A DNA stretch of 64,000 nt, from NCBI GenBank assembly GCA_030710605.1, contig CP092879.1:44521151-44585150 (forward strand), read 5' to 3'. This document shows positions 9,956-58,810 of this stretch, piece by piece. The notes beneath the pieces are model-generated. The model saw nothing but the letters and a program-made list of their open reading frames with translations. It was not told the DNA's origin and made no database searches. A program made the translations under genes and the position numbers. Within the stretch, counting starts at the first letter, position 1. The number at the start of each line of letters is the position of its first letter. The stretch comes from Cordylochernes scorpioides. Its lineage: Eukaryota > Arthropoda > Arachnida > Pseudoscorpiones > Chernetidae.

Positions 9956-11215
9956 ACACATTCTCTAGAGTCAAATCTATTAACTTGATTCCTTCCAGAT
10001 CCAACTCTATAACGCGGCGAAACCTCTCCATCCGGATAGTTCAAATGTATAGAATATTGCTATTGTTATATTCTAAAGTCAAATCTATAACCTAGCACTC
10101 CCCCCCCCCCCCTTTAGAACCAACTCTATAACGCGGCAAAACCTTCATCTGGATAGCTCAAATATATAGATTATTAATCATTGTATCTTTCTAGAGTCAA
10201 ATATATAACCTTGACTCCTTCCAGAAATAAAGATATAACGCGACAAAACTTTACCCTGATACCTCAAATGTATAGATTATTACCATTGTTATATTCTAGA
10301 ATCAAATCTATGAACACTTGACTACTTCCAGAACTAGCTCTATAACGCAGCAAAACTTTCATCCGGTTAGGTCAAAGATATAGATTATTGCCATTGTTTC
10401 ATTCTAGAGTCAAATCTATGAACACTTGAGTCTTTCCAAAACCAACTCTATAACGCAGAAAAACTTTTATCCGGATAAATAAAATGTATAGATTATTGCC
10501 ATTGTTATATTCTAGAATCAAATCTATGAACACAGCTCTATACAGCTCTATAACGCAGCAAAACTTTTATCCGGTTATCTCAAAGATATAGATTATTGCC
10601 ATTGTTTCATTCTAGAGTCAAATCTATGAACACTTGAGTCCTTCCAAAACCAACTGTATAACGCAGCAAAACTTTTATCCGGATAGCTCAAATGTATAGA
10701 TTATTGCCATTGTTATATTCTATAGTCAAATCTATAACCTTGACACACACACACACGCGCGCGCGCCTTTAAAACCAACTCTATAACGCGGCAAAACTTT
10801 CTCATCCGGATAGCTCAAATATATAGATTATTGTCATTGCTTCATTCTAGAGTCAAATCTATAACCTTGACTCCTTCCAGAATCAAACATATAACGTGAC
10901 AAAACTTTACCCTGAAACCTCAAATGTATAGATTATTATCATTGGTATATTCTAGAATCTAATCTGGAACCCTCTTCCCCTTCCTTGACTTCTTTCAGAA
11001 GCAACTCTATAACGCGGCAAAACTTACTTCTGAATAGCTTATATGTATAAATTATTATATTTTTATATTCTAGAGCCAAATCTATGAACTGGAATTTTCC
11101 ATAATTTACAACCGGAGATAGCTCAAAGTTATAGATAATTGCCATTGTTATATTCTAGATTCAGATATATCACCTTAACTCCTTCCAGAACTAGCCATAC
11201 AACACGATTCAATTT
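9956..11215. repeat. Satellite array, about 108 bp unit, about 11-12 copies
   Basis: The landmark TATAACGCGGCAAAAC recurs near 10008, 10128, 10234, 10341, 10449, 10549, 10658, 10782, 10891 and 11009, and in decayed form near 11107. This gives spacings of about 100-124 bp. Each unit also holds TTCTAGAGTCAAATCTAT, CCGGATAGCTCAAATGTATA and GATTATTGCCATTG. Two units carry simple-sequence expansions at the same internal position: a poly-C run near 10101 and a CA/CG run near 10743. No coding potential is seen. Confidence 0.92.
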
Positions 11216-11924
11216 CCTTTCGAAAGGACAAATATTTTGCAAACGTATATGGATTTGACACACAAAACGAGACTACATTTTTATTCTTTTATATATTGCA
11301 AATAAATATCCCACTTATATCTGAAATCGAGAGGCAATACAAATGGAATATCAAAGAAAAATATACTTACACTTTGATTGGAAATATCTACTGGTTAGAA
11401 AAAAATCAAATAGCTTTTCAAGGCTTTACAAAAATATATTTTTAGATGTTTATCTATAAAGAGACATAAGAAGAAACGCTTGTAGAATATTAATAATCTC
11501 CAGAGCTTGTGGTTTCTAATAAATTATTGAAAATAAACTTTCTGTCGCAATACTTGACTCATTATTTTAATAAAAATAGAGCTTTTACGAGCCTTCTAAA
11601 ATTGATATACGCATTGCAATATATAGACACTTAATGGTTTAAATATGTAAAATAGATTAGTGTTTGGGTGTGGAAGACCCTGATTTAAATGCAAAAAGAT
11701 ACACGTGTGCGAATTTTTGAAACATAGTTATCATAATTTGGATGCTACAATGCTAATATACATTTATATATATGTTATATTAAAATATTATTGTATTCAA
11801 AATTATATTTCATCGATTCAAATACTTTGTTAAATCGACCGCCAGAAGTTACGCTTCCCATATAAAAACTCGTTGTTGTTGTTTCCCGATGGCCGGCTTA
11901 AACCTTTGTACATTATGTAAATAA

Positions 11925-12430
11925 CAGCCCGAAACGCGTCCGTGGTTAGCTTTTCTTGATTAATCAAGAATAGGTATTTGGCTAATTCTGGAATAATTAA
12001 AAATCAACGAGAATAGTTGATATTTATTCCGATAGATGGCGCAAGCCATCAGCAACTTTCAGTTGCACGATAAGGAGATGCCTTTTCTTAATTTATGCAC
12101 CTTATCCCAGTACAATATTACATTTGTACTATTTTTTCACATCTGTGTAGCGTTCTCACGCAATACTGGCCTTAACTACCCATTTCATGATTTTTCAGGA
12201 TGCCTTAATGACCACTTTTTTGGTCGTTTAGGTACAGCTTGCACCACGCTGATGAGGGCCAACAGCCCGAAACGCGTCCGTGGTTAGCTTTTCTTGATTA
12301 ATCAAGAATGGGTATTTGGCCAATTCTGGAATAATTAAAAATCAACGAGAATAGTTGATATTTATTCCGATAGATGGCGCAAGCCATCAGCAACTTCCAG
12401 TTGCACGATAAGGAGATGCCTTTTTCTTAA
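11925..12430 (+). mobile_element. 506 bp hammerhead-ribozyme retroelement, 1.5-mer, with 13 bp target duplication
   Basis: The insertion is flanked by ATTATGTAAATAA at 11912-11924 and 12431-12443. The same repeat without the insertion exists at 41284-41560. Inside, the sequence starting at GAAACGCGTC (11931) repeats 338 bp later (12269), so the insertion is one full unit plus about half of a second in head-to-tail order. Unit landmarks are TTTTCTTGATTAATCAAGAA, GATAGATGGCGCAAGCCATC and AAGGAGATGCCTTTT. The left end begins inside the ribozyme. Head-to-tail units with a self-cleaving ribozyme and a target duplication recall retrozymes and the non-autonomous RNAs mobilised by Penelope-like elements. 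There is no ORF, so it is non-autonomous. Confidence 0.8.
12236..12288 (+). ncRNA. Hammerhead ribozyme with minimal stem III
   Basis: The catalytic core is complete: CUGAUGA at 12249-12255, a 4 bp stem II (GGGC/GCCC, loop CAACA), GAAA at 12269-12272, and a GUC cleavage triplet ending at 12278. Stem I pairs ACCACG (12243-12248) with CGUGGU (12279-12284), with a further AGC/GCU pairing outside an internal loop. Stem III is only the self-complementary ACGCGU, a form known in retroelement and satellite hammerheads that are thought to cleave best as dimers. The copy at 11925 keeps only the 3' half. Confidence 0.85.
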
Positions 12431-14121: not shown

Positions 14122-14374
14122 CTACTTTCCGGACATGTCAACAAGGATCTTGAGGAGAGGTCTTAGTGGGGTTTTGGGAACGGGGACGACTTCATCGTGG
14201 GATGGGAAGGAGAGACCGCTACAGGCCGCGGTGCCCGGGGCATACCCCGCACAAGCCAGTGCCATCACATCCCCGGTGTAGCTGTTTACAACCTCCTCCA
14301 GGAATTTGCCTGTCTCGGTCGAGCAATGGTCGTGGGTTGCTTTTACAGCACAATCACGGAATTCCGCGAAGTTG
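14122..14374 (-). CDS. Terminal exon D3' (left-arm copy) of cysteine-rich secreted-type protein
   Basis: On the - strand the acceptor TTGATTCGCAG is followed by one base and then codons for NFAEFRDC and so on, ending LVDMSGK before the stop. It keeps four cysteines (FRDC, HDHC, LACAG, TAAC), as in D1 and D2. The protein is identical to the right-arm D3. Two silent changes separate them: the first exon base (C here, T there), which completes a TG? cysteine codon either way, and a glycine codon (GGC here, GGT there). It needs an upstream phase-2 donor, which exon C' at 30341 supplies. Function unknown. Confidence 0.8.
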
Positions 14375-14848
14375 CTGCGAATCAAACACATTGTGATGTT
14401 TATATATACATAGCAATAAGAAAGCAACAATTTGAGAGATAGTTACCTGAAATTATTTAAAAGTAAAATATAACAAAGGTATTATATTTGACCTTATTAA
14501 ACATGACCCTCATCGACAAAGACACCTTAAAAATAGATATTCGCATTAAACCTCGGCTAAAGATGTTTTTATCTTCTTATTTATTGAGATTTTATACATA
14601 TAACAAACTCACATACTAATTTTATGAAACTAAGCGAAGAGAAGATACTTTTCATAAGTTTTCATTACGAACAACAAATCATATAAAAGGGCTAAAACAT
14701 TTGTGCTGATAATTATTGAAAATAAATTTATTTACTTTCTTCAGGGAATCAAAATATAAGCTTCATAGGTTAGATTATAACGAAGAGAATAATAAACAAA
14801 ATATATAACTGCTGTTTTGTATTTCAAACAACGGAATATTTAGTGCAT

Positions 14849-18677: not shown

Positions 18678-18924
18678 CTATCGCATGCTAGTAATGATTG
18701 AGAGGAGAGGCTTGATCACAGTGATGGCTGAAGGAATCTCCTCATTGTGGGATGGAATCTTGATATTCTCGCAAGCAGCAGACCCCACTTCAAATCCAAC
18801 GCATGCCAGGGTCATGACCTCTCCTGTATAACTGTCCATCACCTGATCCAAGAATTCTGCCACGTCAGCATTGCAGTGAGTGTGTGCAGCCTTCAATGAG
18901 CAAGATTTGAAGTCGGCGAAAGAG
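18678..18924 (-). CDS. Terminal exon D2' (left-arm copy) of cysteine-rich secreted-type protein
   Basis: On the - strand the acceptor GTGTTTCCAG precedes one base and the codons SFADFKSC. Cysteines follow in HTHC, LACVGF and SAAC, and the reading frame ends ITSMR-stop. The encoded residues are identical to the right-arm copy at 58811-59057. The amphipathic stretch between the second and third cysteines (AEFLDQVMDSYTGEVMTLA) looks helical. The upstream in-frame ATG lies before a good acceptor, so I treat this as an exon rather than a stand-alone ORF. Confidence 0.82.
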
Positions 18925-19796
18925 CTGGAAACACGACCCCAAGTCATAATTCGTCAAGTTGCTTACTGAAGATAAATAAACGCTGACTCCAAATTAGAAT
19001 ATAATTTGAAATATTTTAAAGAAATTAAGTTAAGAATAATATGCGATTCTATTTTTTATAGATGGAATTCTGGTATATATCAATATCTTGATTGAAAGTT
19101 GAGCTTCTCAAGGAATAAACCTTTTCGCTTTCGATTTTCTTGATATTATAAATTTATATTCTCTTTCTTAAAACAAATAGAGAGACTTTATCGTTAAAAT
19201 AAAGTCGACAAATACAATTATTACTATTGAAGGTCTCTGTAAAACCCTAGATTATTTTTAATATTATCCCATTGTATAATTATACAAGGTCATGAAGAAT
19301 GAATAAGTCTCCATGATAGGTAAAAAGAGCTGCTGTTGTTGGTTAGCTCTCCAATGGGCATCACATGGAGGTGACAGTCAGACTTTTCCTCTTGGATTCA
19401 CTAGGTTAATGGTCAACCAAATGTTACGAAACCATTTTTGCTAAATTTTGAATGTAGGCCATGGTTTTAGGTGCTATGGCTCTCGTCAGACCAAGACGGC
19501 GTCGATTTTACAAGGCCCAGTGAAGGAACCTTGAAATATCTCCAATTTGCTTAAGATGTAATTTGAGATGGCAAAATGACTGAGATAATTCTATGGTTGG
19601 AAAATATTAGATTTTGTTTAAGAACATAATCATGAAAAGGAAAATACACTTTTTACTTCTAAATATATACCCAGTCGATGAACCTTTCTGCAATCATTTT
19701 TGAATGTTATTTAGATGAAAAAATCTATATATCTCTCATATATCTTTGTAATTATAGATTATTTCTTCTCTATTTAATTTATATATATTTAGATAT

Positions 19797-20007
19797 GAAA
19801 AAACAATAGAAAAAAATAAAAGATAAGTGGGTCAGGTGTTGATATTAAAAATAAAGAAGGCATCTCCTGGCCACAAGCACATGTGCTTGGCCAAATATCT
19901 CGGAGTAAGCTAAATAAACGTTTAGTTTATTTTTACTCCACTAGATGGCGCTCTGCCATCTAAAAAGCACATGTGCTTGTGGCCAGGAGATGCCTTCTTT
20001 ATTTTTA
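19797..20007 (-). mobile_element. Left-arm-only hairpin element with 12 bp target duplication
   Basis: It is flanked by ATATTTAGATAT at 19785-19796 and 20008-20019. The right arm has this 12-mer once (as its complement, 57941-57952) and no insertion. The body is a long hairpin of about 44 bp arms (AAAGAAGGCATCTCCTGGCC, AAGCACATGTGCTT) around ACTAGATGGCGCTCTGCCATC. On the - strand a tail 'ATCAACACCTGACCCACTTA' and a T-rich end follow. It shares GGCCAA, TAGATGGCGC and GAGATGCCTTTTT landmarks with the hammerhead element. Confidence 0.85.
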
Positions 20008-21039
20008 ATATTTAGATATATTTTATAAAATATTCATAATTTAAAAAAAATATATATAAATATATCTATATAACTAAAATTAATATTTAAAATCTCCATT
20101 GCTGTGAAAGTGACTTCATTCTTAGAGAACTTATTATATTATACATTATCTTCTAAAAGAAGAAAGAGAAATATATTGGTTCAATATTTTGGAATAATTA
20201 ATGCTGAACTCAAACACCTGGTTCATAGGACTAAACCCATATAATATAGGTAATATCGTTATCTAGTTTATGTACATGAACCAGTGTTCAGCACAGTCGT
20301 TAGTCTCTTCTTCTTAGTCCTTGAATATCAGCAAATAGAAGGTCCACTGCATAAGCAAATTTTATTTGATTCGAATGACTAGTTTGAAAGGTATGTTTTC
20401 TTCAATGTGATCTACTTATAGCCATAGTCTGGTGATAATATATTGTCTTGGTGTAGGTTGTCAATTCGATGAGGATTGTTATAGGAAAAATAATGCTGTG
20501 GTTTGTTTTCTGAATTTTTATGCTTTTGATCTAATATAGGTTCACCAATTTTGAGAAATCTCTTTTACCATCAAGGGCTGGTGAGTGTCCTCTTTAATTT
20601 TATAATGTATTTGAAGACTTATCACGGTGTCCTCTTTTCGGTGTCCTCTTGGATTTGCCGCTCTAAGGCGTTGTCCAACCTCTTCCACGTGGAGTGGTCA
20701 GCTAGGAATTTTCAATTCAAATATTTGGAACCATTTAGTGGAATTTCTCATACTCATCCAGTATTTTGAGAAGCATGTATACACTCATGGACAAAACTTG
20801 AGGAAGTTCCATATTTTAAGTATAAACTACTCCTTATTTGTTATATAACGGCGGATTTCTCCTAAATGTATATTCGAACGTTCTCATTTTCAAAATATAA
20901 AAAAATATAATAATAAATATAAATATATATGCTGAAATGTATAACATTTCTTTTGTTTTTCCATGAATGGAAATGCTATGGAAATATAAGTTCTTTTTTA
21001 TATCTACTAAGATAAACTTCATTAATATAACTAACTATT

Positions 21040-21233
21040 AAAATTAATAAAGGCATATCCTGACCAAAAGCACATGTGCTTTTTAGATGGCAGAGCGCCA
21101 TCTAGTGGAACAGAAAACAACTAAACATTGATTTAACCTGTTCCCTGAAGTAAATCAATGTTTAGTTGATTTCAGTTCTGCCATCTAAAAAACACATGTG
21201 GTTTTGGTCAGGACATGCCTTTATTAATTTTAT
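21040..21233. repeat. Hairpin element, variant (left copy)
   Basis: The terminal arms are TTAATAAAGGCATATCCTGA and its complement, each followed by AAAGCACATGTGCTTT-type palindromes and AGATGGCAGAGCGCCATCT. A matching copy lies at 56703-56898 in the right arm, so it predates the split of the two arms. Confidence 0.82.
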
Positions 21234-24200
21234 AATATCAACATCTAACCTTTTTATTATTTTTTTCTATTATTTTTTCATAACTAACAATAATACAAGA
21301 TCTTCGTACTACACCCATGTTCTCGCAAGAATACTTAAAATTGAGGATTTCATTTTATCAAACATACTTAAAAAATTGAAATGAATTATTATAAAAAGAA
21401 GACTGCAAAAAATAATGAAATATATAACCTTATAATTGAAAAATTATAAAAAAATACTATGAAGATTATAATGATTATTTCAGAGAATATTCTAGAAAAC
21501 TCAAGATTACCAAAATTTATCCAGCCAAATGTTTATAATATAAAATTTATACGTGGCATGGCGACTTTAACACGTACTTGAATTGATAGAACTGATTTTT
21601 CTATCTTCTTACGTGACCAAGAAGAATATAACTCGGAACATATTTTAATCCGGTGCCCACATGTTGCAGATTTGAGAGTACAATGTCAAATGAACAGTTC
21701 CAGTTTAAGCCGAATGGTTTTCAGTAAAGAAGAATATAGAAAATTAAAAATATTCTGCAGACTCTCCCTCAACTACCGTGGACCTAAATTACACTAATGA
21801 ATTGAAAATTCTAACTTCAATTTGTATATTTTATTAATTTTAAACATTCTATATTCATATAATTAATTTATTGGTTAATTATTATAATATATATTGAAAA
21901 TTATTGATTCTTTAAAAATAGAAAATAAGATTTAATACGTAAATACACTCTTTCTTGTATAAAGGGTTTGCTCTAAAATGTATATTTATATAATATTTCA
22001 CTATCTCTCTCTTTAATACTAAAATATTTTAATATATATTTTGATAGAGATGAAATAAAATATTTTGAATATTTACACGCAACTATCCACATAGGATATA
22101 ACTTATGTGTGTTTTGGAATAATTAAATAAAATAAATCATTTTACTGAAGTAAAATTACCAAGGCATGGCTCTCAAATGTATACTTATTCTTGTGAGTCC
22201 TTAGTAGCACTATCCATACATGTATCGAAGAAGAAATAAAAGTTAACGGCGACGAAATTCTTTATTTAAATATAAATAAATTAAACTTGTTGCCGTAAAC
22301 TTTGATTCCTTCTTCAAGATGATGTCTGGTGATTCCTTCTCTTGTAATATTGAGAATTTATCATTAAAATACTTTTAATAATGTATATATCTTTATTTTA
22401 ATGTTAACCCAAGTCAATTATATTCTGAAGAAGTATACCCATTTCGTTTTGACCAAAACAATATCTGTACATCTCAATTATTTAAGCTTCAACTCCATTT
22501 TTTCTTCTTCAATGAGATAGAAAAATACATTATTATAAAGCTTTAGATTTTACTAATATTTACTTGATTCTTTGGGGAAAAACATAAGAAAATTTCAAGT
22601 ATTGAATAAGTCTGAACCATGTAATAGTTCAAAAGTCGAATTAATTGGCAAGAATATGGATTCAGTAGTTTAGGATATGTTACAAAACAGACAAGCAAAC
22701 CAATTCTGTTGTAGGAAATGAGAGGATTGGAGCATGAATGTATTTTTTACACATAAAACAAACTTCTACTGTCCTTACTGTGATGAAAAATTTATTGGGT
22801 GGGCTTGGCTCATCAATGGTGAACTTTCCCAAGTTTTCATTATCATTAAACATCCCTTTGAAGGAAGATAAAAATTATGTGAAATTGACTATTAAATGAC
22901 ATTTTTTTCTTTCTCTCTTATTACTATATTAGCATATATATTCTATTATTGTGCGGCAGAGTATATTTTAAAGAAAAATATATTAATATATGGTTATTTT
23001 ATATATTTTGTTATATTTAGCATATTTATTTCTATGCTTCTGTACTTCCATGTTGGTTTGTTCAAAATAAAATGCTTTTTTATTTTCATGGTTGTCTTCC
23101 CTCATTTTCAACGTGACATCTTGGTGGAGATGCTGGGTAGACTAAGGAAGACAAACTGAAGATCGCCGAGGAGACCTCGTGGCTGTGAGTACTGTAAACT
23201 ACATTTACCGCGACCAACTTAAGGATTCCATCGTCGTGTCAAAGTCAAGACTTCAAGAAGACGATGTTTCCATAGGTCGTTGTAAGGATAAATTCGATCT
23301 TCACACCGCAAGAAAAAGGACGTAAAGCCATTAAGAACTTTAGACATAACGGAATGAATTGTATATTTTAAATTCAGAATAATGGTGCTTATAGTAATTA
23401 ATTTATTTAATCATATCTATTAATAAGATAGTTTAAAAATTTGTTAACACAATGTTCTCTTTGAGGTTGAACATTCAAACCGGAAAACCCAGATTAAATC
23501 GAGTAATTGCGTTAGTTTTAATCCATATATTTTAAAAAGGATATATCTACATTAACCATTCTTGATTTCTTTACCTTCCGACGTTTCTGAGATTCACTGT
23601 CACCTTCCTCAGGGGAAAATTTTTCTTTTTTGAAATATTTTTTCTTCTTCTTCTTCTTAAAAAAAAATACTTTTTCGCTTAAATATCAAAACAATGCATC
23701 TTTTTGATCTTTTATTATTAGCAGAACGCTCTCTTATTTATATTGTAATAATTGTAGTAATATATATTGCAAAAATGCGAGAGGACAATACTCTTTGTGC
23801 ATACGTAATTATTCTGAATATATACAGTGCATCAAAAACCCTTTCTTAACAGTCCTCGTTTCCGAATGTTTTCATCTTAACAGATTTATTGTGTGAATAA
23901 TCTAAATCCGGTTAATATTTATATATTAAAAAGAGACAAAATTATTTGCTTATTAGCTTCGTTACTATTTTACCCTTCATAGATATCCCCTTTAATTAGG
24001 ACACATCCTTCTATTAAATAAGAGTTCTTTATATATAAATATATATTTAGAAATCAACTTTTATTGTGCTAAAAGATTTACCAATTAATAAGCGTATTAG
24101 TATTTAATTTTCCTGACACATTTAAAATTTGCAAATACATTACATGCAAATTATGAAGCTCTGAAAAGACCCAAATTTAGAAGTTTTCTTATTGAAGCTT

Positions 24201-24300
24201 ATTTCCATTTAGAGAAGTCATTTTCAAATTTGATGAATATATCTCGAATCTGATCTTAGTGTTAACTCTCAAATGCATTTTCAATACACTATATATATAT

Positions 24301-24490
24301 TAAAAATAAAGAAGGCATCTCCCGACCACGAGCACATGTGCTTTTTAGATAAAAGAGCGCCATCTAGTGGAAATATAAATAAAAAGCACATGTGCTCGTG
24401 GTCAGGAGATGCCTTCTTTATTTTTAATATCAACACCTGACCCACTTATCTTTTATTTTTGTCTATCGTTTTATCATATATATATATAAC
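24301..24490. repeat. Hairpin element (left copy)
   Basis: It has the same arms as the element at 19797 (AAAGAAGGCATCTCC, GAGCACATGTGCTTTTT) around GAGCGCCATCTAGTGG, and the 'ATATCAACACCTGACCCACT' tail. The right copy is at 53515-53700. The loop is shorter than in other members. Confidence 0.82.
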
Positions 24491-24732: not shown

Positions 24733-24976
24733 TCACATTTCTGTAATGATTTTAAGGAGGGGTTTGACCACAGTTATGGCCGATGGAACCTCTTCATTAT
24801 GGGATGGAATCTTGTAGTTGCCGCATGCCGTGGAACCCACTTCGAATCCCACACATGCCAGTTTCATTACATCTCCTGTGTAACTGTCCATCACCTGATC
24901 CAGTAAGTTCGCCACATCAGCATTGCAGTGAGTGTGTGCCACTTTCAAAGTGCAAGATTTGAAGTCGGCGAAAGAG
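24733..24976 (-). CDS. Terminal exon D1' (left-arm copy) of cysteine-rich secreted-type protein
   Basis: On the - strand, acceptor CGTGTTTCCAG leads to one base and then SFADFKSC, as in D2. The four cysteines are kept, and the exon ends with LKIITEM-stop. The protein matches right-arm D1 completely. The only coding change I see is a silent TTC/TTT phenylalanine at the start. It is closer to D2 than to D3. An AATAAA lies about 60 bp after the stop (TTAAAAATAAAAAAT on the coding strand), which suits a last exon. Confidence 0.82.
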
Positions 24977-25110
24977 CTGGAAACACGAATTCATATTATC
25001 ATTCTATAAGTTACTGTTCTAGCTAAACGATTCTATCTAAATCTAACTAAGAGAGAAGAATGTTATAAAATATCAAAAACCTTTCGCAATATACCAATGG
25101 TATATATATA

Positions 25111-25320
25111 TATTAAAAATAAAAAAGGCATTTCTAGACCAGGAGCACATGTGCTTTTCAGAAGGCAGAGCGCCATCTGGTGGAACAGAAATCCACTAAG
25201 CATTAATTTAGTCTGTTACATGATATTTGGCCAACCCAATATATTGATAAATCAAGAAAAGCCATCCACGAACGCGTTTGCGCTGTTGGTGCTCGTCAGC
25301 GTGGAGCAGGCTGTATAATA
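25111..25320 (-). mobile_element. Hairpin element with decayed hammerhead (left copy)
   Basis: On the - strand it begins with a hammerhead-like region (25260-25312: stem I CCACG/CGTGG, CTGACGAG) and continues through TTTTCTTGATTTATC, GGCCAAATATC and CAGATGGCGCTCTGCC to GCACATGTGCT and a TTTTTATTTTTAATA end. The GAAA box reads CAAA, so cleavage is unlikely. It links the hairpin family to the hammerhead element in one molecule. Confidence 0.75.
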
Positions 25321-28029
25321 ATTTTGGTCCCAGAAGCTTCTTGAGAAACCAAGAAATGGATATTTAAGACTAAACTTGCGTAAATACGTTTAACATTTTT
25401 TCATATATATATATATATATAATTTATGTTTCATTATTGTGATAAAAAAATTAAGGAACTTATTGCGTAAGTCTTTTGATATTTTATAATAATAAATCGC
25501 AAAATTCCTCTAGAATGTATTGTTATTTTTCAATTTATATTTTCTGAAAGATATTCTCAGATTAAATTGAACTTCTAGAAGTTAGACCCATTTTCTTTTA
25601 CGAATTTCAACCAGCGGCTCTTTAACCTGCAGAGCTAGGTCTTAGAATGATGCCAGGTTGATTACGCTCTGATCATCCTGGCGTCCAACAAGGCGTGCTT
25701 GTACAAGTTCTTCTTAAGTGAGAAGAATTAAGAAGAATGCAATAAAATCCCCTTGTATTATTATTTCAATGAATAATATTGTACTATATAGTGAGCTACT
25801 TTCTTTTATGTTTATCATGTCTTATATATGAAAAACAGATGTTAATATTATTCTGTTTATTTATAATATTTTTCAAATCTCATTCTCAAAACTAGGGTAA
25901 TTCATGATTATACTTCTAAGGAAGCTTGTTCAGATAATCTCACATTTTATGCTGACACAAAGAACACCGAACCAGCATAGGATAGGTTAATCCATGTTTA
26001 GGGGAAACCTGGAAATCTTAAACAATAAATCACAAAATTCGATTTATAGTTGATAGATAGCATTATTACCAGTTGGTGTGTTAAATATGATACTTACTTG
26101 ACTTTAATTTTGAATAAATTTAGGTATATTTAAAACTAGAATGTTTTAAAAAGGTTTGTTATTGTGATTTATTTTCTTTTACCACCTACCTCTCATCAGG
26201 TTGCTGTTTTTATTTTTCTCTTAATTATAAAGCGATATAACGTGCCATCTATATATAAGAAAGGGAAGCATCAAAGCATGAATGTTTCTTTTAAACATAA
26301 AAAAATAAACTTCTACTGTCCTTACTGCAATGGAAAAAACACTGATGAGCCAAGAGCCCTCCCAATAATCTTTCACCACAGTAAAGATAGTAGAAGTTTA
26401 TTTTATGTTCAAAAAAAAAAACATTCGTGATTTATTTATTACCAGTTACAAATAAGACACGCTATATCCTATATGGATAATTGAACGTGAAACTATTTAC
26501 AATAATTCATATTGTAGTAGAGTAGGTAACAGAATTATTAATGATTCCTTTTCTAATTTTTTAAATATATGCAGGAGGCCCTGGTTTATCAGTGGTAAAC
26601 CCTCCAAAGAATTCGCCGCAGTTTGATTATCAATACCGTATAATATTGTATTGTACTATTTATTATGATATTTTCGAGGAATATATGGTGAAGGTATCAG
26701 AGCTGCTAAAAGAATACTAGCGTTATATAAAGACAGTGGTTATATCACGGAGATGTTAAATCTAGAAATTATATAATAATAAATATATATGAAATATTTT
26801 GACGTTATCTGCGTCTGAATTTATCAGACAAAAACAAGAACCGAGTTTTAAAAAAGAACTAATAATAGCAAGCGTCATATTGTAAAACAAGATGTCCTTG
26901 GAGTAGAGAACACACACGTCATTAAACCCAACACCATTATAGCTTTATGTATTAGTCACCAACTAATTAGAAATAAAAAGTTTACATATACAAGGAGTGG
27001 TGTAATTATAGGTGATGACAAGATTTGTCCTAAGACAATGTAGACACTCTATCCCAACCAGATTCTCTCTGTTTCTACCTACATTGCGAACTGTAGATAC
27101 AATAATACATTAAAGGGAAATTCGTCGGAATGTGAACCAGACTTTCAAATAAATATCACAAAATCTATATCAGCCCTTCAACCTGCGACAATTTATTTTT
27201 CAAAATATTTCAATTCCGAAATTTACAACTTGTCTAGGGTCTCAACATTTTCAATTATATATTTAAATATATTTATCATTATATAATCTAATTTATTCGT
27301 ATTTATTCAATTCTGTATTTAACCTTATATAATCTTATATGAACATTGTAATAAATCAGTTTCAATCTCAATCTCAACATTTTCAAGGTACAAAAATAAC
27401 TATTTTAAAGAAACTTCCAAAAGGATTATTGAACCTGTGGTCCAGTCTTCACGTATTTATATATTTACCTAACACGAAAAGAAAATAATAACAAGAACTA
27501 CGCATGCGCTAGGAACTAGAAGAGAGTATATGAGCGGAAGTATATAAATGGGGCAGCATATGTGAACTTCATACTTATTCTGATTATTTAACCTGTGATC
27601 CAGTCTTTACGTACTTACATATTTACCTAACATGAAAGAAAATAATAATACGAACTACGCATGCGCTAGGGACCAGAAGAGAATAAATGAGTGGAAGTAT
27701 ATAAATTGGGCAGCATATATAAACTTCATACTTTACCTGAATATATATAATTTATTATGACCTTTTAAAAACTAATAAATACCGCCAATGCGATAAAAAT
27801 TATCAATTTGAAAACTTGATTTTTCATATTCTTTTTAAACAAATGAAATTCCGTTTAAAAATTTTATTTAAAATCGATTATAGAAATAAATTCTAAATAT
27901 ATTACTATATAAAATGAATGATTTTCTCTTCAATATAATCAATATTTTTGATGTATATTTTACAAAATCTTAACGTATCTTTTTACATTTATCAAACCCA
28001 ATTGAATTTATATGCATCATATATTTACT

Positions 28030-31045: not shown

Positions 31046-33134
31046 TTCTAAAGAAACGGTAATCCAAGCAAATATTTCTCAATTAATCAATATACGACTA
31101 CACTGAAGTTCAGATATTTTCATGTGAATTCCGCAGCCAATTGATTTCATCAAATTTCTTGACTCATTCTAATTCCAAAAATACTGTAAAGTTTCTTATT
31201 TTTACTTTATAAATTAATTTAACAACCTTTATGAATGAGGTAGATTTATTTTGAAGGATTCACTTCAGCTGAAAATATTTTTGAAATTTTAATAGTTACC
31301 TATATATTTGAATAATATATATCTTGACGGTTTATTTAGTGAAAAATATTTTCAAATAAAAAATATATTTTTTCAAATTTGTAATTATTGATATTTCTTG
31401 CTTCTTTTTACCTAATTTCTTCAACTGAAAATGGTTTGGGATGGCTTATCTAATCAATGTTGAATTTTTTCGGTGATTTCGCCAATTTAATAGACCAAAT
31501 CTTTCTCGTTATCTATATTATATGTTGAATCTGCTTTTGTACTTAGAACTTGAAAGTTTAATAATAGTGATGTATTTTGCTAAACTATATGGAGAAACAG
31601 GTTACTGTATGGGTAAAACTCTCATGTGTAGTTTTGCTTCGAGCACAGGTCTTCTGCATATAGAACAAGATAACAAACACAAAGGCCTGTTTGGGCACCA
31701 TAAAAATAAAAAAAATATATTTATACAATTACAGAAGACTCTTTCCATAATTTCGTTAAAATACCATCACAAAGAATCAACCTACAAGCGCAGAATTTAA
31801 GGATATGGTCTATTAAATTGATAGACTTGTTGTAAAGGTTTACCATTAATGAATCAAGCCTTCCAAACTCCTTTTAACCTATAATTTTCTATTTTAGGAA
31901 TTACATCTTTTATTTATCACCAAAAATAACGTTGACTAATTCTATCCTAACATATAGTGTGTTATTTATATTGTTTCACACTTAATAATATATATTATGA
32001 GATATAACTGTTCAATTTTGTGTAATTCTAAATCTATTATGTGTTAATGATATTTAAAATACCAATTTTATTTATGGATGTGAATTTTGAAAACTTTTCT
32101 TTCGTCTGTGTTATTATTCTGTACGACCAGTTTTTTAATAGCACCATTAGATCGAAACTGGAAATACAAGTCCAATTTGGATGAATGACCAAAGGAAAAA
32201 TCCCAGGCTCTATTGTTTAAAGTTTTCCTGCCTTTGAGAACTGGGAAGAAATGATAACAAATTATAGTAATGAGTATAATGACAATTTTATTCATAAGTA
32301 CGGACTATTGTCTCTTCACTGTCAACATAATCTTCCCAGTGCTACAATAATAAAAAATAACCATTTTTATATAAACAAGTGAACTTTAGAGTCTGCAGCA
32401 TTTTTCTTTACGGTCATTTTGGATTCTCCAAAATATACCTTTGATATTTATCTGAAAGAATGTTCTATATATAATGTTAAAACAGACTCTATCCTTTATT
32501 TAAAGCTATTTGTCACTTATTCTATATTGGAATCTTTAATATCTACTTTTTATTCCTCTCTTTCCTAGTAATGTACTCAAATCTTGTCTTTTGATCGATC
32601 ATAAACTTGATTCATATTCTTCGGCTCACTTACTTTTGGTATATCATTAATATAAAATCTATCATTTGTATTCTCTCTCTTCTTCTCTTCTGGAGTTGCA
32701 ATGAAAACAGATCCTATAGGAAAACACTATCAAATATTATCGTGTATTTGCTACTTATTTTAATTTGAAAAATGGCTATTTTTCAACATATCTATCTTAT
32801 ATAGTCTTCTGAAAGCTCTTCTTCTTTTATACAAGTTCTCTAACTTTTAATATATTATAGCGAAAGGAGTTCTTTAATATTTTAAATCTATTACTTTCTC
32901 TTTGGGCCGAGGCAAAAGTATCTTTCGTTTAGATGCTATCTGCATGTTGGTTTATTAGTAAAAGGACATATTTACCTAATACCTCCGGCCTAAGAGGCTC
33001 TAGTGCAACATGAATCGAACAGTTTCATATATTACCCCCCCATGTGATACAGATTAGCGCTATCTACTTATATATTTGCCTTATTCTGTCTGTTTGTTTG
33101 TCTGTCTGAAGCTCACGGATGGGATTTTTCATAA

Positions 33135-33205
33135 CCATCGGTGGTTCCGTGGTAGAATGCTCGCCTGCCACGCTGGCAGCCCGGGTTCGATTCCCGGCCG
33201 ATGCA
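33135..33205 (+). tRNA. tRNA-Gly-GCC-like, damaged, inside Helitron unit 1
   Basis: This is a 71-base glycine tRNA shape with anticodon GCC and an intact B box (GGTTCGATTCC). The A box is altered (TGGTTCCGTGG), the anticodon stem and variable region differ (GCTGGCAGCC), and base 1 is C rather than G. A T-run follows directly. Confidence 0.65.
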
Positions 33206-33419
33206 TTTTTTTTTTTTTTTACAATTTTTAAAACTCATTTATATATTATACAAGAATGACATCCACGGCGCCAATTTATAATTGTAACGAATAGTATTTG
33301 AATAAAAGCATTTAATCGGGTAAAACCCGGGCGTTGCCCGGGTCATTCGTATCTACTTATATATTTGCCTTATTCTGTCTGTTTGTTTGTCTGAAGCTCA
33401 CGGATGGGAATTTTCATAA

Positions 33420-33490
33420 CCATCGGTGGTTCAGTGGTAGAATGCTCGCCTGCCACGCGGGAGGCCCGGGTTCGATTCCCGGCCGATGCT
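33420..33490 (+). tRNA. tRNA-Gly(GCC), near-intact, inside Helitron unit 2
   Basis: The length is 71 bases. The D arm (TGGTTCAGTGG A box), anticodon loop (CTGCCAC), stem and T arm (B box GGTTCGATTCC) are all as in a normal glycine tRNA. The acceptor stem pairs CATCGG with CCGATG, with a single mismatch at base 1 (C facing C). A T-run of more than ten bases follows at once, which is a strong pol III terminator. It could be transcribed. Charging may suffer from the C1 change. Confidence 0.8.
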
Positions 33491-34747
33491 TTTTTTTTTT
33501 TTTACAATTTTTAAAACTCATTTATATATTATACAAGAATGACATCCACGGCGCCAATTTATAATTGTAACGAATAGTATTTGAATAAAAGCATTTAATC
33601 GGGTAAAACCCGGGCGTTGCCCGGGTCATTCGTATATAATAATTGTATAAACGAATGCAAGACAAAATCACCGCGAATGTTTCTTTTTTTTTTTAAGGCA
33701 ATTTCTTTTTAAGGCAATTATCGTTATTTATCGTTAATTTTTGTTTCGATTATATTGAAAAAAAAAACTATATGGTGCCTTTAAAAAATGATCTTTATTA
33801 CTATGCAGTTTTCTGTTTAGTCAATATACCTAAGTTCATGTTGCAAATGTAATTATCTCTATCGATTTAGTAGGTGAAATGCAAAAAAAAAAAATCGACA
33901 TGATGAAATCTTTATGAAAATTCACATTTTTATTTTTATATTTTCAAGACACACACAGTTTGGGGCGGGACGTTTCACAAGAGAGACATCCACGGCGCCA
34001 ATTTATAATTGTAACGAATAGTATTTTAATTGAAACGTTTTAAAAACACACAGTTTGGAACGCGACGTTTCACAAGAGTAACATCCATGGCGCCAATTTA
34101 TAATTGTAACGAATAGTATTTGAATTAAAACGTTTTTAAAATATATACGCACTCGGGTAAAACCCGGGCGTTGCCCGGGCCATTCGTCTAGTTTAAGAAT
34201 AATAAAATAAATGAATAACCTTAGCTTACTTGAGAATACATATATAATCATAATAAGAACTTATATAAACATTTATTGTTTACCTTATGACAATGGATAC
34301 TCGAGTTTAATAGGATACGCGTTTCATAGGGAAGAGAAAACGTCGATCAAAAATTAACGCACGATAAAATGAATTTTCAAATATAAAAAAAAATTGTTTG
34401 CTTTTATAAGTTAATTTCTATATTAAAGAGAATTTTGAAATAATTTTCTAATTGAAAAATAATATATATTTTTTAACTTTCTCTCATTCTGATTTTCTTC
34501 TTGATTTGAGAGATTTTCTAAAATTCTGCTTGAAAACTTATTTAAATAAACATATTCTCATTTAATAATATATATGTTATTATATTTAGCCTCAAAAAAT
34601 TTATTATCAATTAAAGAGATAAATGTTTTGTGATTTTTCTCTAAAAAGCAGTATCCCTCATTTCTCAACGTTCAGACAATTCACAATCTGAAATCTTCTT
34701 TTAACTCTCAGTCACCGGTTTAATAAAATTAGGAATTGTACTTTTGT

Positions 34748-41295: not shown

Positions 41296-41560
41296 AGTTT
41301 AAACTATGGCAATGCAGTCGTGGTTCAAAATAACAATTTTGAAAGTATGAAAATAAAATAAGTTTTGAAAGAGATTTTTTAATTGAGCTCTATAGGATAA
41401 ACATAATTTGATTAAAGTACAGCCTGGCTTAAGGCGAGTGAACAAAGAAAACAAAATATTATTTACATAATTACAAAGTTTTGGGTCGGCCAACGGGGAA
41501 GAACAACAATCAGTTTATATAGTAGAAGCGTGACCTCTGGCGGTCGATTAAAACAGTATT
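41284..41560 (-). repeat. Intact copy of the repeat at 11835-12520 (empty site for the hammerhead element)
   Basis: Read on the - strand it runs from ATCGACCGCCAGAGGTCACG through TTTGTAATTATGTAAATAAT to CGCCTTAAGCCAGGCTGTAC without interruption. Confidence 0.8.
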
Positions 41561-41898
41561 TATATCTATGAAATTATAACTCTAAATAAAATAACATTTT
41601 AACATATAACATTTTTAAATAAAATATTTCAATATAACATATATATGTTAAATATTCCCTTTATATCTCTCTTAAAATAAATTCATCCTTGGAGAGTTTG
41701 ATTTTCACTCTGATTAGTATCATTTTTTGCTTTATTTTTCATCTTGGATTGCGAATCGATTCTAGATTTGACGAGATATTTTTCAAAAAGAATTTTATGT
41801 TTATACATTGATCTGTTTAAGAATTGAATCTAGTTGAGGGTTTACTGAATGAAAAATATAACAGGTATTTCTCTGTTGTTTCCTCTAGTGAAGGTTAG

Positions 41899-52535: not shown

Positions 52536-52590
<55 letters not shown>
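52535..52590. repeat. (AT)n microsatellite
   Basis: A run of alternating AT of more than 50 bases lies here. The left-arm equivalent near 25405 is about half as long. Confidence 0.95.
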
Positions 52591-52594
<4 letters not shown>

Positions 52595-52677
52595 AATTGT
52601 TAAGCGTATTTACGCAAGTTTAGTCTTAAATATCCATTTCTTGGTTTCTCAAGAAGCCTCTGGGACCAAAATTATTA

Positions 52678-52885
52678 TACAGCCTGCTCCACGCTGACGA
52701 GCACCAACAGCGCAAACGCGTTCGTGGATGGCTTTTCTTGATTTATCAATATATTGGGTTGGCCAAATATCATGTAACAGACTAAATTAATGCTTAGTGG
52801 ATTTCTGTTCCACCAGATGGCGCTCTGCCTTCTGAAAAGCACATGTGCTCTGGTCTAGATATGCCTTTTTTATTTTTAATATATA
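52678..52885 (+). mobile_element. Hairpin element with decayed hammerhead (right copy)
   Basis: It mirrors 25111-25320. The hammerhead-like region at 52681-52733 keeps stem I (CCACG/CGTGG) and CTGACGAG, but the invariant GAAA reads CAAA, so it should not cleave. Confidence 0.75.
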
Positions 52886-53259: not shown

Positions 53260-53514
53260 TGAATGTCCAAATACTGGACTCTTATATGTTACCTTTTAGC
53301 TAGAGAACTTTAAAAATAAAAAATATATTTAGACTAGAGAATGTTTAATTATTCTTAGTTAGTTAGCGTTTAGATTAAGTCCAAAATATGGATGTATGTA
53401 ACTATAATTATAAAGATTTGTTAAAAAGCCATAGGGTAGATAGGAATTCATTTCAAAAAAATCAAAATTTAATAATATTTATTTTTAAAACTCTTTCGGG
53501 AGGTTATATATATA

Positions 53515-53700
53515 TATGATAAAACGATAGAAAAAAAAAAAGATAAGTGGGTCAGGTGTTGATATTAAAAATAAAGAAGGCATCTCCTGACCACGAGCAC
53601 ATGTGCTTTTTATTTATATTTCCACTAGATGGCGCTCTTTCATCTAAAAAGCACATGTGCTCGTGGTCGGGAGATGCCTTCTTTATTTTTAATATATATA
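53515..53700. repeat. Hairpin element (right copy)
   Basis: It mirrors 24301-24490: arms with GAAGGCATCTCCTGACCACG and AGCACATGTGCT around the CACTAGATGGCGCTC loop, with the TGGGTCAGGTGTTGAT tail. Confidence 0.82.
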
Positions 53701-56700
53701 TAGTGTATTGAAAATGCATTTGAGAGTCAACACTAAGATCAGATTCGAGATATATTCATCAAATTTGAAAATGACTTCTCTAAATGGAAATAAGCTTCAA
53801 TAAGAAAACTTCTAAATTTGGGTCTTTTCAGAGCTTCATAATTTGCATGTAATGTATTTGCAAATTTTAAATGTGTCAGGAAAATTAAATACTAATACGC
53901 TTATTAATTGGTAAATCTTTTAGCACAATAAAAGTTGATTTCTAAATATATATTTAAATATAAAGAACTCTTATTTAATAGAAGGATGTGTCCTAATTAA
54001 AGGGGATATCTATGAAGGGTAAAATAGTAACGAAGCTAATAAGCAAATAATTTTGTCTCTTTTTAATATATAAATATTAACCGGATTTAGATTATTCACA
54101 CAATAAATCTGTTAAGATGAAAACATTCGGAAACGAGGACTGTTAAGAAAGGGTTTTTGATGCACTGTATATATTCAGAATAATTACGTATGCACAAAGA
54201 GTATTGTCCTCTCGCATTTTTGCAATATATATTACTACAATTATTACAATATAAATCAGAGAGCGTTCTGCTAATAATAAAAGATCGAAAAGATGCATTG
54301 TTTTGATATTTAAGCGAAAAAGTATTTTTTTTTTTATTTAAGAAGAAGAAGAAGAAGAAATTAAAGCTAGCGCAATTACTCGATTTAATCTGGGTTTTCC
54401 GGTTTGAATGTTCAACCTCAAAGAGAAATTGTGTTAACAAATCTTAAACTATCTTATTAATAGATATGATTAAATAAATTAATTACTATAAGCACCATTA
54501 TTCTGAATTTAAAATATACAATTCATTCCGTTATGTCTAAAGTTCTTAATGGCTTTGCGTCCTTTTTCTTGCGGTGTGAAGATCGAATTTATCCTTACAA
54601 CGACCTATGGAAACATCGTCTTCTTGAAGTCTTGACTTTGACACGACGATGGAATCCTTAAGTTGGTCGCGGTAAATGTAGTTTACAGTACTCACAGCCA
54701 CGAGGTCTCCTCGGCGATCTTCAGTTTGTCTTCCTTAGTCTACCCAGCATCTCCACCAAGGTGTCACGTTGAAAATGAGGGAAGACAACCATGAAAATAA
54801 AAAAGCAATTTATTTTGAACAAACCAACATGGAAGTACAGAAGCATAGAAATAAATATGCTAAATATAAAAAATATATATAAAATAACCATATATTAATA
54901 TATTTTTCTTTAAAATATACTCTGCCGCAAAATAATAGAATATATATGCTAATATAGTAATAAGAGAGAAAGAAGAAAATGTCATTTAATAGTCAATTTC
55001 ACATAATTTTTATCTTCCTTCAAAGGGATGTTTAATGATAATGAAAACTTGGGAAAGTTCACCATTGATGAGCCAAGCCCACCCAATAAATTTTTCATCA
55101 CAGTAAGGACCGTAGAAGTTTGTTTTATGTGTAAAAAATACATTCATGCTCTAATCCTCTCATTTCCTACAACAGAATTGGTTTGCTTGTCTGTTTTGTA
55201 ACATATCTTAAACTACTGAATCCATATTCTTGCCAATTAATTCGACTTTTGAACTATTACATGGTTCAGACTTATTCAATGCTTGAAATTTTCTTATGTT
55301 TTTTTCCCCCAAATAATCAAGTAAATATCAGTCAAATCAAAAGTTTTATTATAATGTATTTTTCTATCTCAATGAAGAAGAAAAATATGGAGTTGAATCT
55401 TAAATAATTGAGATGTACAGATATTGTTTTGGTCAAAACGAAATGGGTATACTTCTTCAGAAGTTAAATTGATTTGGGTTAACATTAAAATAAAGATATA
55501 TACATTATTAAAGGTATTTATAATAGTTTATTTCAACTTTTCAATAATAAATTCTCAATATATAATTCATATTAAAAGAGAAGGAATCACCAGACATCAT
55601 CTTGAAGAAGAAATCAAAGTTTACGGTGACAAGTTTCTCTTATTTATATTTAAATAAAGAATTTCGTCGCCGTTAGCTTTGATTCCTTCTTCTATATAAC
55701 TCATATTTTAAATACATACGTGAATAGTGCTATTAAGGACTCTCAAGAATAAGAATACATTTGAGAGCCATGCCTTGGTAATTTTACTTCAGAAAAATGA
55801 TTTATTTTATTTAATTATTCCCAAACACACATAAGTTATATCCTATGTGAATATTTGCGTGAAAATATTCAAAATATTATATTTTATCTCTATCAAAATA
55901 TATATTAAAATATTTCTACTATCAAAGAGAGAGTGAAATATTATTCAAATATACATTTTAATGCAACATTTATACAAGAAAGTAAGTATATTTACATATT
56001 GAATCTTATTTTATAGTTTCAAAGAATTAATAATATTTAATATAGTGTAAAATTAACCAAAATATTAATGGTATAAATATAGATTATTTAAAAATAATAA
56101 AATATACAAATTGAAGTTAGAATTTTCAATTCATTAGTGTAATTTAGGTCCACGGTAGTTGAGAGAGAGTCTGCAGAATTTTTTAAATTTTCTATATTCT
56201 TCTTTACTGAAAACCATTCGGCTTAAACTGGAACTGTTCATTTGACATTGTACTCTCAAATCTGCAACATGTGGGCACCGGATTAAAATTATGTTCCGAG
56301 TTATATTCTTCTTGGTCACGTAAGAAGATAGAAAAATCAGTTCTACCAATTCAAGTACGTGTTAAAGTCGCCATATGCCACGTATAAATTTTATATTATA
56401 AACATTTGGCTGGATAAATTTTGGTAATCTTGAGTTTTCAAAAATATTCTCTGAAATAATCATTAGAATCTTCATAGTATTTTTTTTGTAATTTTTCAAT
56501 TATAAGGTTATATATTTCATTCTTTTTTTGCAGGCTTCTTTCTATAATAATTCATTTCAATTTTTTAAGTATGTTTGATAAAATGAAATCCTCAATTTTA
56601 AGTATTCTTGCGAGAACATGGGTGTAGTACGAAGATCTTGTATTATTGTTAGTTATGAAAAAATAATAGAAAAAAATAATAAAAAGGTTAGATGTTAATA

Positions 56701-56702
56701 TT

Positions 56703-56898
56703 AAAATTAATAAAGGCATATCCTGACCAAAACCACATGTGTTTTTTTAGATGGCAGAACTGAAATCAACTAAACATTGATTTACTTCAGGGAACAGGTT
56801 AAATCAATGTTTAGTTGTTTTCTGTTCCACTAGATGGCGCTCTGCCATCTAAAAAGCACATGTGCTTTTGGTCAGGATATGCCTTTATTAATTTTAAT
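56703..56898. repeat. Hairpin element, variant (right copy)
   Basis: It mirrors 21040-21233, with the TTAATAAAGGCATATCCTGA arm and CACATGTG palindromes. Confidence 0.82.
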
Positions 56899-58810
56899 AG
56901 TTAATTATATAAATGAAGTTTATCTTAGTAGATATAAAAAAGAACCTATATTTCCATAGCATTTCCATTCATGGAAAAACAAAAGAAATGTTATACATTT
57001 CAGCATATATATTTATATTTATTATTATTATTATTATTATTATTTTTTTTTTGAAAAGGAGAACGTTCGAATATACATTTAGGAGAAATCCGCCGTTATA
57101 TAACAAATAAGGAGTAGTTTATACTTAAAATATGGAACTTCCTCAAGTTTTGTCCATGAGTGTATACATGCTTCTCAAAATACTGGATGAGTGTGAGAAA
57201 TTACCACTAAATGGTTCCAAATATTTGAATTGAAAATTCCTAGCTGACGCCTCCACGTGGAAGAGGGTGGACAACGCCTTAGAGCGGCAAATCCAAGAGG
57301 ACACCGAAAAGAGGACACCGTGATAAGTCTCCAAATACATTATAAAATTAAAGAGGACACTCACCTGCCCTTGATGGTAAAAGAGGTTTCTCAAAATTGG
57401 TGAACCTATATTAGATCAAAAGCATAAGGATTCAGAAAACAAACCACAGCATTATTTTTCATATAACAATCCTCATCGAATTGACAAACTACACCAAGAC
57501 AATATATTATCACCAGACTATGGCTATAAGTAGATCACATTAAAAAACAGACCTTTCACACTAGTAATTCGAATCAAATAAAATTTGCTTATGCAGTGGA
57601 CCTTCTATTTGCTGATACTCAAGGACTAAAAAGAAGAGTCTAACGACTTTACTGAACACTGGTTCATGTACATAAACTAAATAACGATATTACCTATATT
57701 ATATGGGTTTAGTCCTATGAACCAGGTGTTTGAGGTCCTAAGTTAGATTTTATTCAGCATTAATTATTCCAAAATATTGAACCAATATATTTATCTTTCT
57801 TCTTTTAGAAGATAATGTATAATATAATAAGTTCTCTAAGAATGAAGTCACTTTCACAGCAATGGAGATTTTAAATATTAATTTTAGTTATATAGATATA
57901 TTTATATATATATTTTTAAATTATGAATATTTTATAAAATATATCTAAATATATAAAAATTATATAGAGAAGAAATAATCTATAATTACAAAGATATATG
58001 AGAGATATATAGATTTTCATCTAAATAACATTCAAAAATGATTGCAGAAAGGTTCATCGACTGGGTATATATTTAGAAGTAAAAAGTGTATTTTCCTATT
58101 CATGATTATGTTATTAAACAAAATATAATATTTTCCAACCATAGAATTATCTCAGTCATTTTGCCATCTCAAAATACATCTTGAGCAAATTGGAGATATT
58201 TCAAGGTTCCTTCACTGGGCCTTGTAAAATCGACGCCGTCTTGGTCTGACGAGAGCCATAGCACCTAAAACCATGGCCTACATTCAAAATTTAGCAAAAA
58301 TGGTTTCGTAACATTTGGTTGACCATTAACCTAGTGAATCCGAGAGGAAAGGTCTGACTGTCACCTCCATGCGATGCCCATTGGAGAGCTAACCAACAAC
58401 AGCAGCTCTTTTTATACCTATCATGGAGACTTATTCATTCTTCATGACCTTGTATAATTATACAATGGGATAATATTAAAAATAATCTAGGGTATCACAG
58501 AGACCTTCAATAGTAATAATTGTATTTGTCGACTTTATTTTAACGATAAAGTCTCTATTTGTTTTAAGAAAGAGAATATAAATTTATAATATCAAGAAAA
58601 TCGAAAGCGAAAAGGTTTATTCCTTGAGAAGCTCAACTTTCAATCAAGATATTGATATCTACCAGAATCCCATCTATAAAAAATAGAATCGCATATTATT
58701 CTTAACTAAATTTCTTTAAAATTTTTCAAATTATATTCTAATTTGGAGTCAGCGTTTATTTCTCTTCAGTAAGCAACTTGACGAATTATGACTTGGGGTC
58801 GTGTTTCCAG

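What the first reader, a model, noticed from the sequence alone, without database searches (positions are those of the whole stretch)
11925..12430. Hammerhead-ribozyme retroelement inserted as a 1.5-mer, with an empty-site copy in the same window
A complete hammerhead core with minimal stem III (ACGCGU) lies at the junction of head-to-tail 338 bp units, and the insertion has a 13 bp target duplication. The empty target repeat occurs at 41284-41560. This is what is expected from reverse transcription of a circular or multimeric ribozyme-processed RNA.
Basis: partly seen in the sequence, partly recalled or inferred. Interest (0 to 1): 0.88.

Follow-up and report, generated by a model that had tools for sequence, protein, structure and literature searches.

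The report
Ribozyme retroelement inserted Penelope-style
A 338-letter stretch of DNA that codes for no protein but carries a self-cutting RNA motif occurs in thousands of copies in this animal genome, and its insertion scars look like those of Penelope retrotransposons, which suggests that Penelope enzymes copy its RNA, probably as a circle.

Summary
11925-12430 is a 1.5-mer of a 338-nt unit with a 13-bp target duplication, a type I hammerhead at the unit junction and an empty paralogous target at 41459-41471. It is a metazoan non-LTR retrozyme, a known kind.

The new part lies in the host genome (2.62 Gb, unnamed). The exact 30-nt hammerhead core occurs 9,777 times, a control pattern 0 times. 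In 31 distinct fetched loci, 47 of 51 outer 3' ends fall at one of two unit positions 49 nt apart; 20 copies are head-to-head, and 16 of the 18 with both ends in view pair one end of each kind. Units and arms of one locus share variants (0.9-1.6% discordance at 12 segregating sites, 32.8% between loci), so one template sequence served each insertion. Four GIY-YIG Penelope copies of the same genome show this scar, one with its short end 16 nt off. It matches the two internal start sites shown in vitro for an Anolis Penelope (PMC11167929).

Best reading: Penelope protein copies a retrozyme circle from two start sites. Ribozyme activity, circles and partnership were not tested.

The parts
11925..12430 (+). 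Retrozyme insertion A: 506 bp, 1.5 units of 338 nt
11912..11924 (+). Left target duplication ATTATGTAAATAA
12431..12443 (+). Right target duplication ATTATGTAAATAA
12236..12289 (+). Complete type I hammerhead (stem I, stem II, one-pair stem III with CGCG loop); predicted cut after 12278
   Evidence: cleavage not tested
11925..11951 (+). 3' part of a second hammerhead at the 5' end of the insertion; cut site after 11940
12069..12106 (+). Site-1 hairpin, stem GATAAGG/CCTTATC; site 1 after 12091 (unit 151), used at the 3' end of A (12430)
12129..12140 (+). Site 2, CTATTTTTTCAC (unit 200); 3' end of the tailed arm in other copies, internal here
41313..41612 (-). Diverged paralog of the repeat that A interrupts, without insertion; single target copy at 41459-41471
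52590..52885 (+). Copy B, related family, decayed hammerhead (GAAA damaged, CGTT at the cut site)
25107..25403 (-). Copy B', the same insertion on the other palindrome arm
19797..20000 (+). Copy E, head-to-head relative without hammerhead, on one palindrome arm only (the other arm is empty at 57941-57960); 12-bp TSD ATATTTAGATAT; limits approximate
53505..53702 (+). Copy C, head-to-head relative without hammerhead; partner C' at 24290-24488
56649..56911 (+). Copy D, head-to-head relative without hammerhead; partner D' at 21024-21287

Best explanation
A copy of an abundant animal non-LTR retrozyme that is inserted by Penelope-type machinery. Steps: (1) a genomic copy is transcribed (inferred). 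(2) Hammerheads, probably as dimers because stem III is minimal, cut the RNA into 338-nt monomers (motif and covariation shown, activity inferred). (3) The monomer is closed into a circle (inferred; reported for coral, mussel and axolotl). (4) A Penelope protein with RT and GIY-YIG domains cuts both strands of an AT-rich target about 12-14 bp apart (scars shown, enzyme inferred). (5) The cut ends prime at two fixed internal sites of the RNA, in the loop of a hairpin (site 1, unit 151) and at CUAUUUUUUCAC (site 2, unit 200); the end positions are shown, their use as start sites is inferred from the Anolis enzyme. (6) The polymerase can run more than once round the circle; two cDNAs are joined head-to-head, or one cDNA is joined to the target (one-armed copies such as A). 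Arms and units of one insertion carry the same variants, so one template sequence served both arms; that this was one circle is the simplest reading.
For: Ends: 47 of 51 outer 3' ends of 31 distinct loci at site 1 (24) or site 2 (23); 16 of 18 head-to-head copies with both ends in view have one of each. A sample taken by position (12 loci, 9 distinct): 3 head-to-head loci with one end of each kind, 5 one-armed loci that end at or near a site, 1 ambiguous. One template: discordance at 12 segregating sites 1.60% within an arm (19 of 1190), 0.92% between arms (9 of 975), 32.8% between loci (21353 of 65084); 0 of 2000 re-pairings of arms reach the observed value. Penelope: GIY-YIG frames of up to 828 aa; four fetched head-to-head copies each have a 32-nt tail on one side only and hammerheads in both arms, TSDs 14, 14 and 12 bp, one in microsatellite; RT-like and GIY-YIG matches in L100. 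In vitro precedent: PMC11167929 (main text read). Hammerhead covariation: 5 of 14 pairs with double changes in 6 variants, 7 of 500 shuffles reach this.
Against: No RNA or enzyme data. Retrozyme and Penelope tails show no clear sequence homology, and a model of the retrozyme hammerhead finds none in 10 Penelope loci (0 matches at E <= 1). The site-1 hairpin is not more stable than shuffles in family 2 (z -0.7, 0.0, 0.5) or in Penelope L099 and L100 (z -1.3, 0.5). Exceptions: 4 of 51 ends at no site; L066 and L070 mix variants; the own partner arm is the nearest in 13 of 19 loci only; one divergent locus may have two site-1 ends (L101-L103); Penelope L100 ends 16 nt short of site 1 and L097 has a few extra bases at both ends. 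Several one-armed copies have no visible TSD. In the Anolis work a dead hammerhead did not stop insertion and unprocessed RNA was used, which speaks for step 5 but against a need for the ribozyme.
Confidence: 0.75

Rival explanations
1. Same Penelope machinery, but the template is a linear, uncut multimeric transcript of a tandem copy; cleavage and circles play no part in insertion.
For: Gives 1.5-mers and longer as well. Donor arrays are themselves homogeneous (0.89% within an arm), so shared variants do not exclude it. The Anolis element used unprocessed RNA, and no reads began or ended at its hammerhead cut site.
Against: The hammerhead is kept in most copies of the fetched loci (94 of 136 pattern hits identical to that of A) and by double changes across variants, which calls for a use. 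Many copies have few units.
Confidence: 0.2
2. A LINE-type enzyme inserted it, and the head-to-head copies come from twin priming.
For: TSDs of this length and inverted copies are also known for LINEs (recalled).
Against: Twin priming puts an internal, variable position at one outer end (recalled); here 47 of 51 outer ends are at two fixed positions and the inner junction varies. GIY-YIG Penelope copies of the same genome show the scar. LINEs of this genome were not examined.
Confidence: 0.04
3. DNA-level amplification: satellite expansion or a foldback DNA transposon.
For: A long 338-bp array exists (C3:52.07-52.08 Mb), and two-armed copies look like foldback elements with TSDs.
Against: Dispersed short copies (79 clusters for the first 100 listed core matches), TSDs outside microsatellites, a tail on one side only, arm lengths in register with a circle, and no sign of fixed symmetric ends. 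Array growth after insertion may still occur (L058 and L059 differ by one unit).
Confidence: 0.02

Closest known systems
Metazoan non-LTR retrozymes (Cervera and de la Pena 2020, PMC7229834; Results parts 1-2 of 3 and Discussion read)
   Same: Type I hammerhead, unit of about 170-400 nt (here 338), low GC, tandem units, TSD longer than 4 bp, many copies, strongly self-paired RNA; stem III like that of axolotl Amex1 (one pair, palindromic tetraloop).
   Different: Here two fixed 3' ends, a one-sided 49-nt tail and head-to-head copies; not described in the parts read. Figures and supplements were not seen.
Penelope-like elements: Anolis Poseidon PAc (PMC11167929, main text read) and Adineta vaga Penelope (PMC3846280, passages and Discussion read)
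   Same: Head-to-head and partial-tandem copies, optional tail at one end, AT-rich targets, short TSDs, hammerhead upstream of two internal RT start sites.
   Different: The retrozyme codes for no protein, has a canonical stem I hammerhead and a longer tail (49 nt against 32 in the Penelope copies here).
Plant LTR retrozymes (from PMC7229834 and passages of PMC7761336; PMC4918200 seen in a listing only)
   Same: Non-autonomous elements with hammerheads and circular RNA.
   Different: Type III hammerheads, LTRs, PBS and PPT, 4-bp TSDs, Gypsy partner.

Membership tests
Metazoan non-LTR retrozyme | Type I hammerhead at the unit junction | tested here: met
   Stem-checked scan 1 in window, 0 in 300 simulations; covariation. 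Rfam only below its threshold.
Metazoan non-LTR retrozyme | Tandem units of about 150-450 bp in many copies | tested here: met
   338 nt; exact 30-nt core 9,777 times; arrays and multi-unit copies.
Metazoan non-LTR retrozyme | Low GC, no protein, TSD longer than 4 bp | tested here: met
   Unit GC 0.393; longest stop-to-stop frame listed over the insert 83 aa; TSD 13 bp.
Metazoan non-LTR retrozyme | No PBS, PPT or LTR of plant type | not tested
   No search for a primer binding site or polypurine tract was made.
Metazoan non-LTR retrozyme | Self-cleavage and abundant circular RNA | not testable with these tools
   Only predicted: unit RNA z -8.3.
Penelope-like element | Own frame with RT and GIY-YIG domains | tested here: not met
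   Longest listed frame over the insert 83 aa; so it is not a Penelope element itself.
Penelope-like element | Insertion scar: head-to-head copies, tail at one end, AT-rich target, short TSD | tested here: met
   16 of 18 two-armed copies, TSDs 12-14 bp outside microsatellites; same scar in Penelope loci of this genome.
Penelope-like element | RT starts at two adjacent internal sites | tested here: inconclusive
   Two fixed ends in the genome; starts themselves need an enzyme assay.
Plant LTR retrozyme | Type III hammerhead, 4-bp TSD | tested here: not met
   Stem I is the open stem; 13-bp TSD.

The most novel reading that the evidence does not exclude
Animal retrozymes are the SINEs of Penelope elements: their RNA circle carries a two-site start module that resembles the Penelope tail in layout, and a Penelope RT dimer copies one circle from both broken target ends at once, more than once round, so that each two-armed insertion is a record of a single circular RNA.
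Probability: 0.6. Interest if true: 0.8.

Novelty: new variant of a known kind. Interest (0 to 1): 0.65.

Why it matters
How animal retrozymes are reverse transcribed is open. PMC7229834 proposes Penelope elements from shared features (hammerheads, tandem copies) and co-occurrence, and PMC7761336 says the repeats show no conserved motif that reveals the partner. This genome holds thousands of copies that record end positions, direction, number of turns and template identity, so two questions become directly testable: whether Penelope protein is the retrozyme enzyme, and whether a circular RNA is its template. It also bears on Penelope elements themselves: the tail and head-to-head form that the Anolis work ties to two start sites are found again on an RNA that codes for nothing.

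Tried and rejected
Rejected: chance hammerhead (0 in 300 simulations, control 0). Rejected as chance: Rfam DUF3800-IX and IS009 on the insert (E 0.12 and 2.5). A loose hammerhead pattern in genome contigs gave 48 bacterial or archaeal stretches; none was printed by the stem check. A pattern in viral contigs found 0; plasmids no match. The hammerhead model did not find the Penelope hammerheads (0 in 10 loci). BLAST hits of the retrozyme in Penelope locus L090 are a small nested retrozyme; otherwise no clear alignment. The 5' ends of one-armed copies cluster, but the query selects for that: no claim.

Limits of the samples: the 38 loci are ranked by similarity to A and favour long copies. 7 were dropped as the same locus or a segmental duplicate (L055, L056, L059, L073, L074, L077, L078). 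In one search matches under 92% identity were left out, which removes older neighbouring copies. Penelope loci L097-L100 were chosen because two GIY-YIG hits faced apart, so that they are head-to-head is by choice; the tail on one side is not. Other Penelope loci L087-L096 (3.2 kb each) were not mapped to their ends. In one search one measure, further pair types, did not exceed shuffles (380 of 500), and (two distinct rows) 58 of 500 reach the observed value.

Not found in print: 'retrozyme' with 'head-to-head' gave 0 papers; searches with Penelope, hammerhead, tail, target-primed, non-autonomous listed none whose title or opening abstract reports a Penelope-type scar in retrozymes; those papers were mostly seen as listings. 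Preprints, most subscription journals and all supplements are not covered.

Full report
Observation. The insert 11925-12430 is a 1.5-mer of a 338-nt unit between two copies of ATTATGTAAATAA. A diverged repeat on the minus strand at 41313-41612 matches both flanks and holds the target once, at 41459-41471. The hammerhead with stems I and II is the only one in the window under a stem-checked scan, with 0 hits in 300 simulations; Rfam sees it only below threshold. The unit as RNA is far more structured than shuffles (z -8.3), the ribozyme alone is not (z -1.2). About 2.1 kb that includes the insert have a 97.2% inverted copy outside the window with the same TSD (L074), so the insertion is older than that duplication. 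Its half-units differ by 3 substitutions and 1 indel in 168 bp, as expected of copies identical at birth.

Other copies in the window. B and its palindrome partner B' carry a decayed hammerhead. Between A and B three stem pairs change on both sides (only two distinct rows, 58 of 500 shuffles reach this). With six variants five of 14 pairs do (7 of 500 shuffles), 92.9% of cells pair (0 of 500), slid controls pair 28.6-43.4%, and one measure, further pair types, does not exceed shuffles (380 of 500). C, D and E share the 3' end but show no hammerhead core in the scan. By my reading each is head-to-head with a longer arm on one side. E lies on one palindrome arm only.

Genome. The window lies in a 2.62-Gb assembly of 24 pieces. 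The exact 30-nt core occurs 4936 + 4841 times; the same pattern read backwards never. 38 loci ranked by similarity to A were fetched; 31 remain after 7 duplicates are dropped.

Fixed ends. Units are counted from the cut site. Outer 3' ends lie near unit 151-157 (site 1..GGAGATGCCTTTTTCTTA(A)|) or 196-208 (site 2..CTATTTTTTCAC|); part of the spread is BLAST running into AT-rich flanks. In one search (windows 145-160 and 193-210, matches of at least 92%) the 31 loci hold 33 clusters. 47 of 51 outer ends are at a site (24 and 23); the misses are the array edge in L062, and L063, L066, L076. 20 clusters are head-to-head; 18 have both ends in view, and 16 of these have one of each kind. 13 clusters have one orientation; 12 end at a site. 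Outside plain microsatellite the TSDs are A 13, L067 14, L068 12, L072 13, L075 13, L079 12, L080 12 (trimmed by eye) and E 12 (by eye). L053, L061, L062, L066, L070, L081, L082 and L083 show none that convinces; L054, L060 and L076 show 10-11 bp with one mismatch. L072 has a slipped repeat of the site-2 tract, as expected of a primer that slips there.

Sample by position. The first 12 core matches on one contig are 9 distinct loci. Three are head-to-head with one site-1 (or near) and one site-2 end (L109, L111, L112), five are one-armed and end at or near a site (L104, L105, L106, L107, L110), and one divergent locus (L101-L103) has two arms with site-1-like ends and 240 bp between them. L106 and L110 show TSDs of 9 and 13 bp by my reading. 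Among the first 100 listed core matches (79 clusters), opposite-strand neighbours within 2 kb are 8 head-to-head and 1 tail-to-tail.

One template per insertion. Units of one strand at a locus differ by 0.89% (156 pairs), units of opposite arms by 0.67% (134 pairs), units of different loci by 2.80% (8668 pairs). At 12 segregating positions the figures are 1.60% (19 of 1190), 0.92% (9 of 975) and 32.8% (21353 of 65084). Re-pairing arms at random reaches the observed value in 0 of 2000 trials, the own partner is the nearest in 13 of 19 loci, and L066 and L070 carry mixed variants. Gene conversion between arms and homogeneous donor arrays remain possible.

Penelope elements. GIY-YIG gives 146 listed matches (of 17015 first-look candidates, 150 scored), in frames of up to 828 aa. 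All 11 listed neighbour pairs within 6 kb are head-to-head. Four such pairs were fetched. Each has one arm that runs to ..CTATCTTCACGA| or its variant, and one shorter arm that ends near ..CAAGAAATAT|, 32 nt before. In L100 the short arm stops 16 nt before that point, and in L097 a few extra bases stand at both ends. TSDs are 14 (L100), 14 (L097) and 12 bp (L099); L098 lies in microsatellite. Both arms of all four carry a minimal hammerhead. L100 has an RT-like match (E 7e-6, below the curated cut-off) and GIY-YIG matches. The Adineta vaga paper describes head-to-head copies with an optional 31-bp tail at one end. The Anolis paper shows two internal RT start sites, the tail between them, and cutting and extension of both target strands.

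Start region. In family 1, site 1 lies in the loop of a hairpin closed by GATAAGG/CCTTATC (fold z -4.1), in family 2 by GGTCAGG/CCTGACC, that is two double changes. But the family-2 stretches do not fold better than shuffles (z -0.7, 0.0, 0.5). The Penelope stretch has CTGGCCG/CGGCCAG around its site 1; L097 folds so (z -2.8), L099 and L100 do not do better than shuffles. Site 2 reads CTATTTTTTCAC (family 1), CTATTGTTTTTTC (family 2) and CTATCTTCACGA (Penelope). The stretches do not align otherwise. This is resemblance of layout, not shown homology.

What is known and what is new. The retrozyme is a known kind (PMC7229834). The Penelope-type scar of retrozymes, and the evidence that both arms come from one template sequence, I did not find in the searches named in Tried and rejected. 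Transcription, cleavage, circles and the enzyme are inferred.

Noticed in passing
13862-35135 and 42829-64000: Large inverted repeat in pieces of about 85-99% identity; the region of insertion A has its own 97.2% inverted copy outside the window (L074), so the palindrome seems to reach beyond the window. A run of N at 35136-35235 lies next to its middle.
   Followed up: partly
33061-33635 and 43249-44003: Tandem units of 283 and 292 bp that each hold a tRNA gene or tRNA-like copy (Gly gcc, Thr ggt).
   Followed up: no
9964-11203, 37314-38069, 46604-47236: Other tandem arrays with periods of about 108, 191 and 68 bp.
   Followed up: no
12035-12060 and the matching place in B, C, D, E: AGATGGCGC is invariant in all five copies aligned, in a small hairpin; it resembles an insect CTCF site (recalled, not tested).
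   Followed up: no
L081 2138-2558: A second retrozyme family with hammerheads 351 nt apart, about 70% identical to family 1.
   Followed up: partly
L090 1001-1135: A very small head-to-head retrozyme beside a GIY-YIG match.
   Followed up: no
18678-18953, 24733-24990, 53002-53259, 58782-59057, 14122-14442, 63420-63740: Related cysteine-bearing frames repeated in the palindrome arms; two of them were scanned and no Pfam family reached its cut-off.
   Followed up: no
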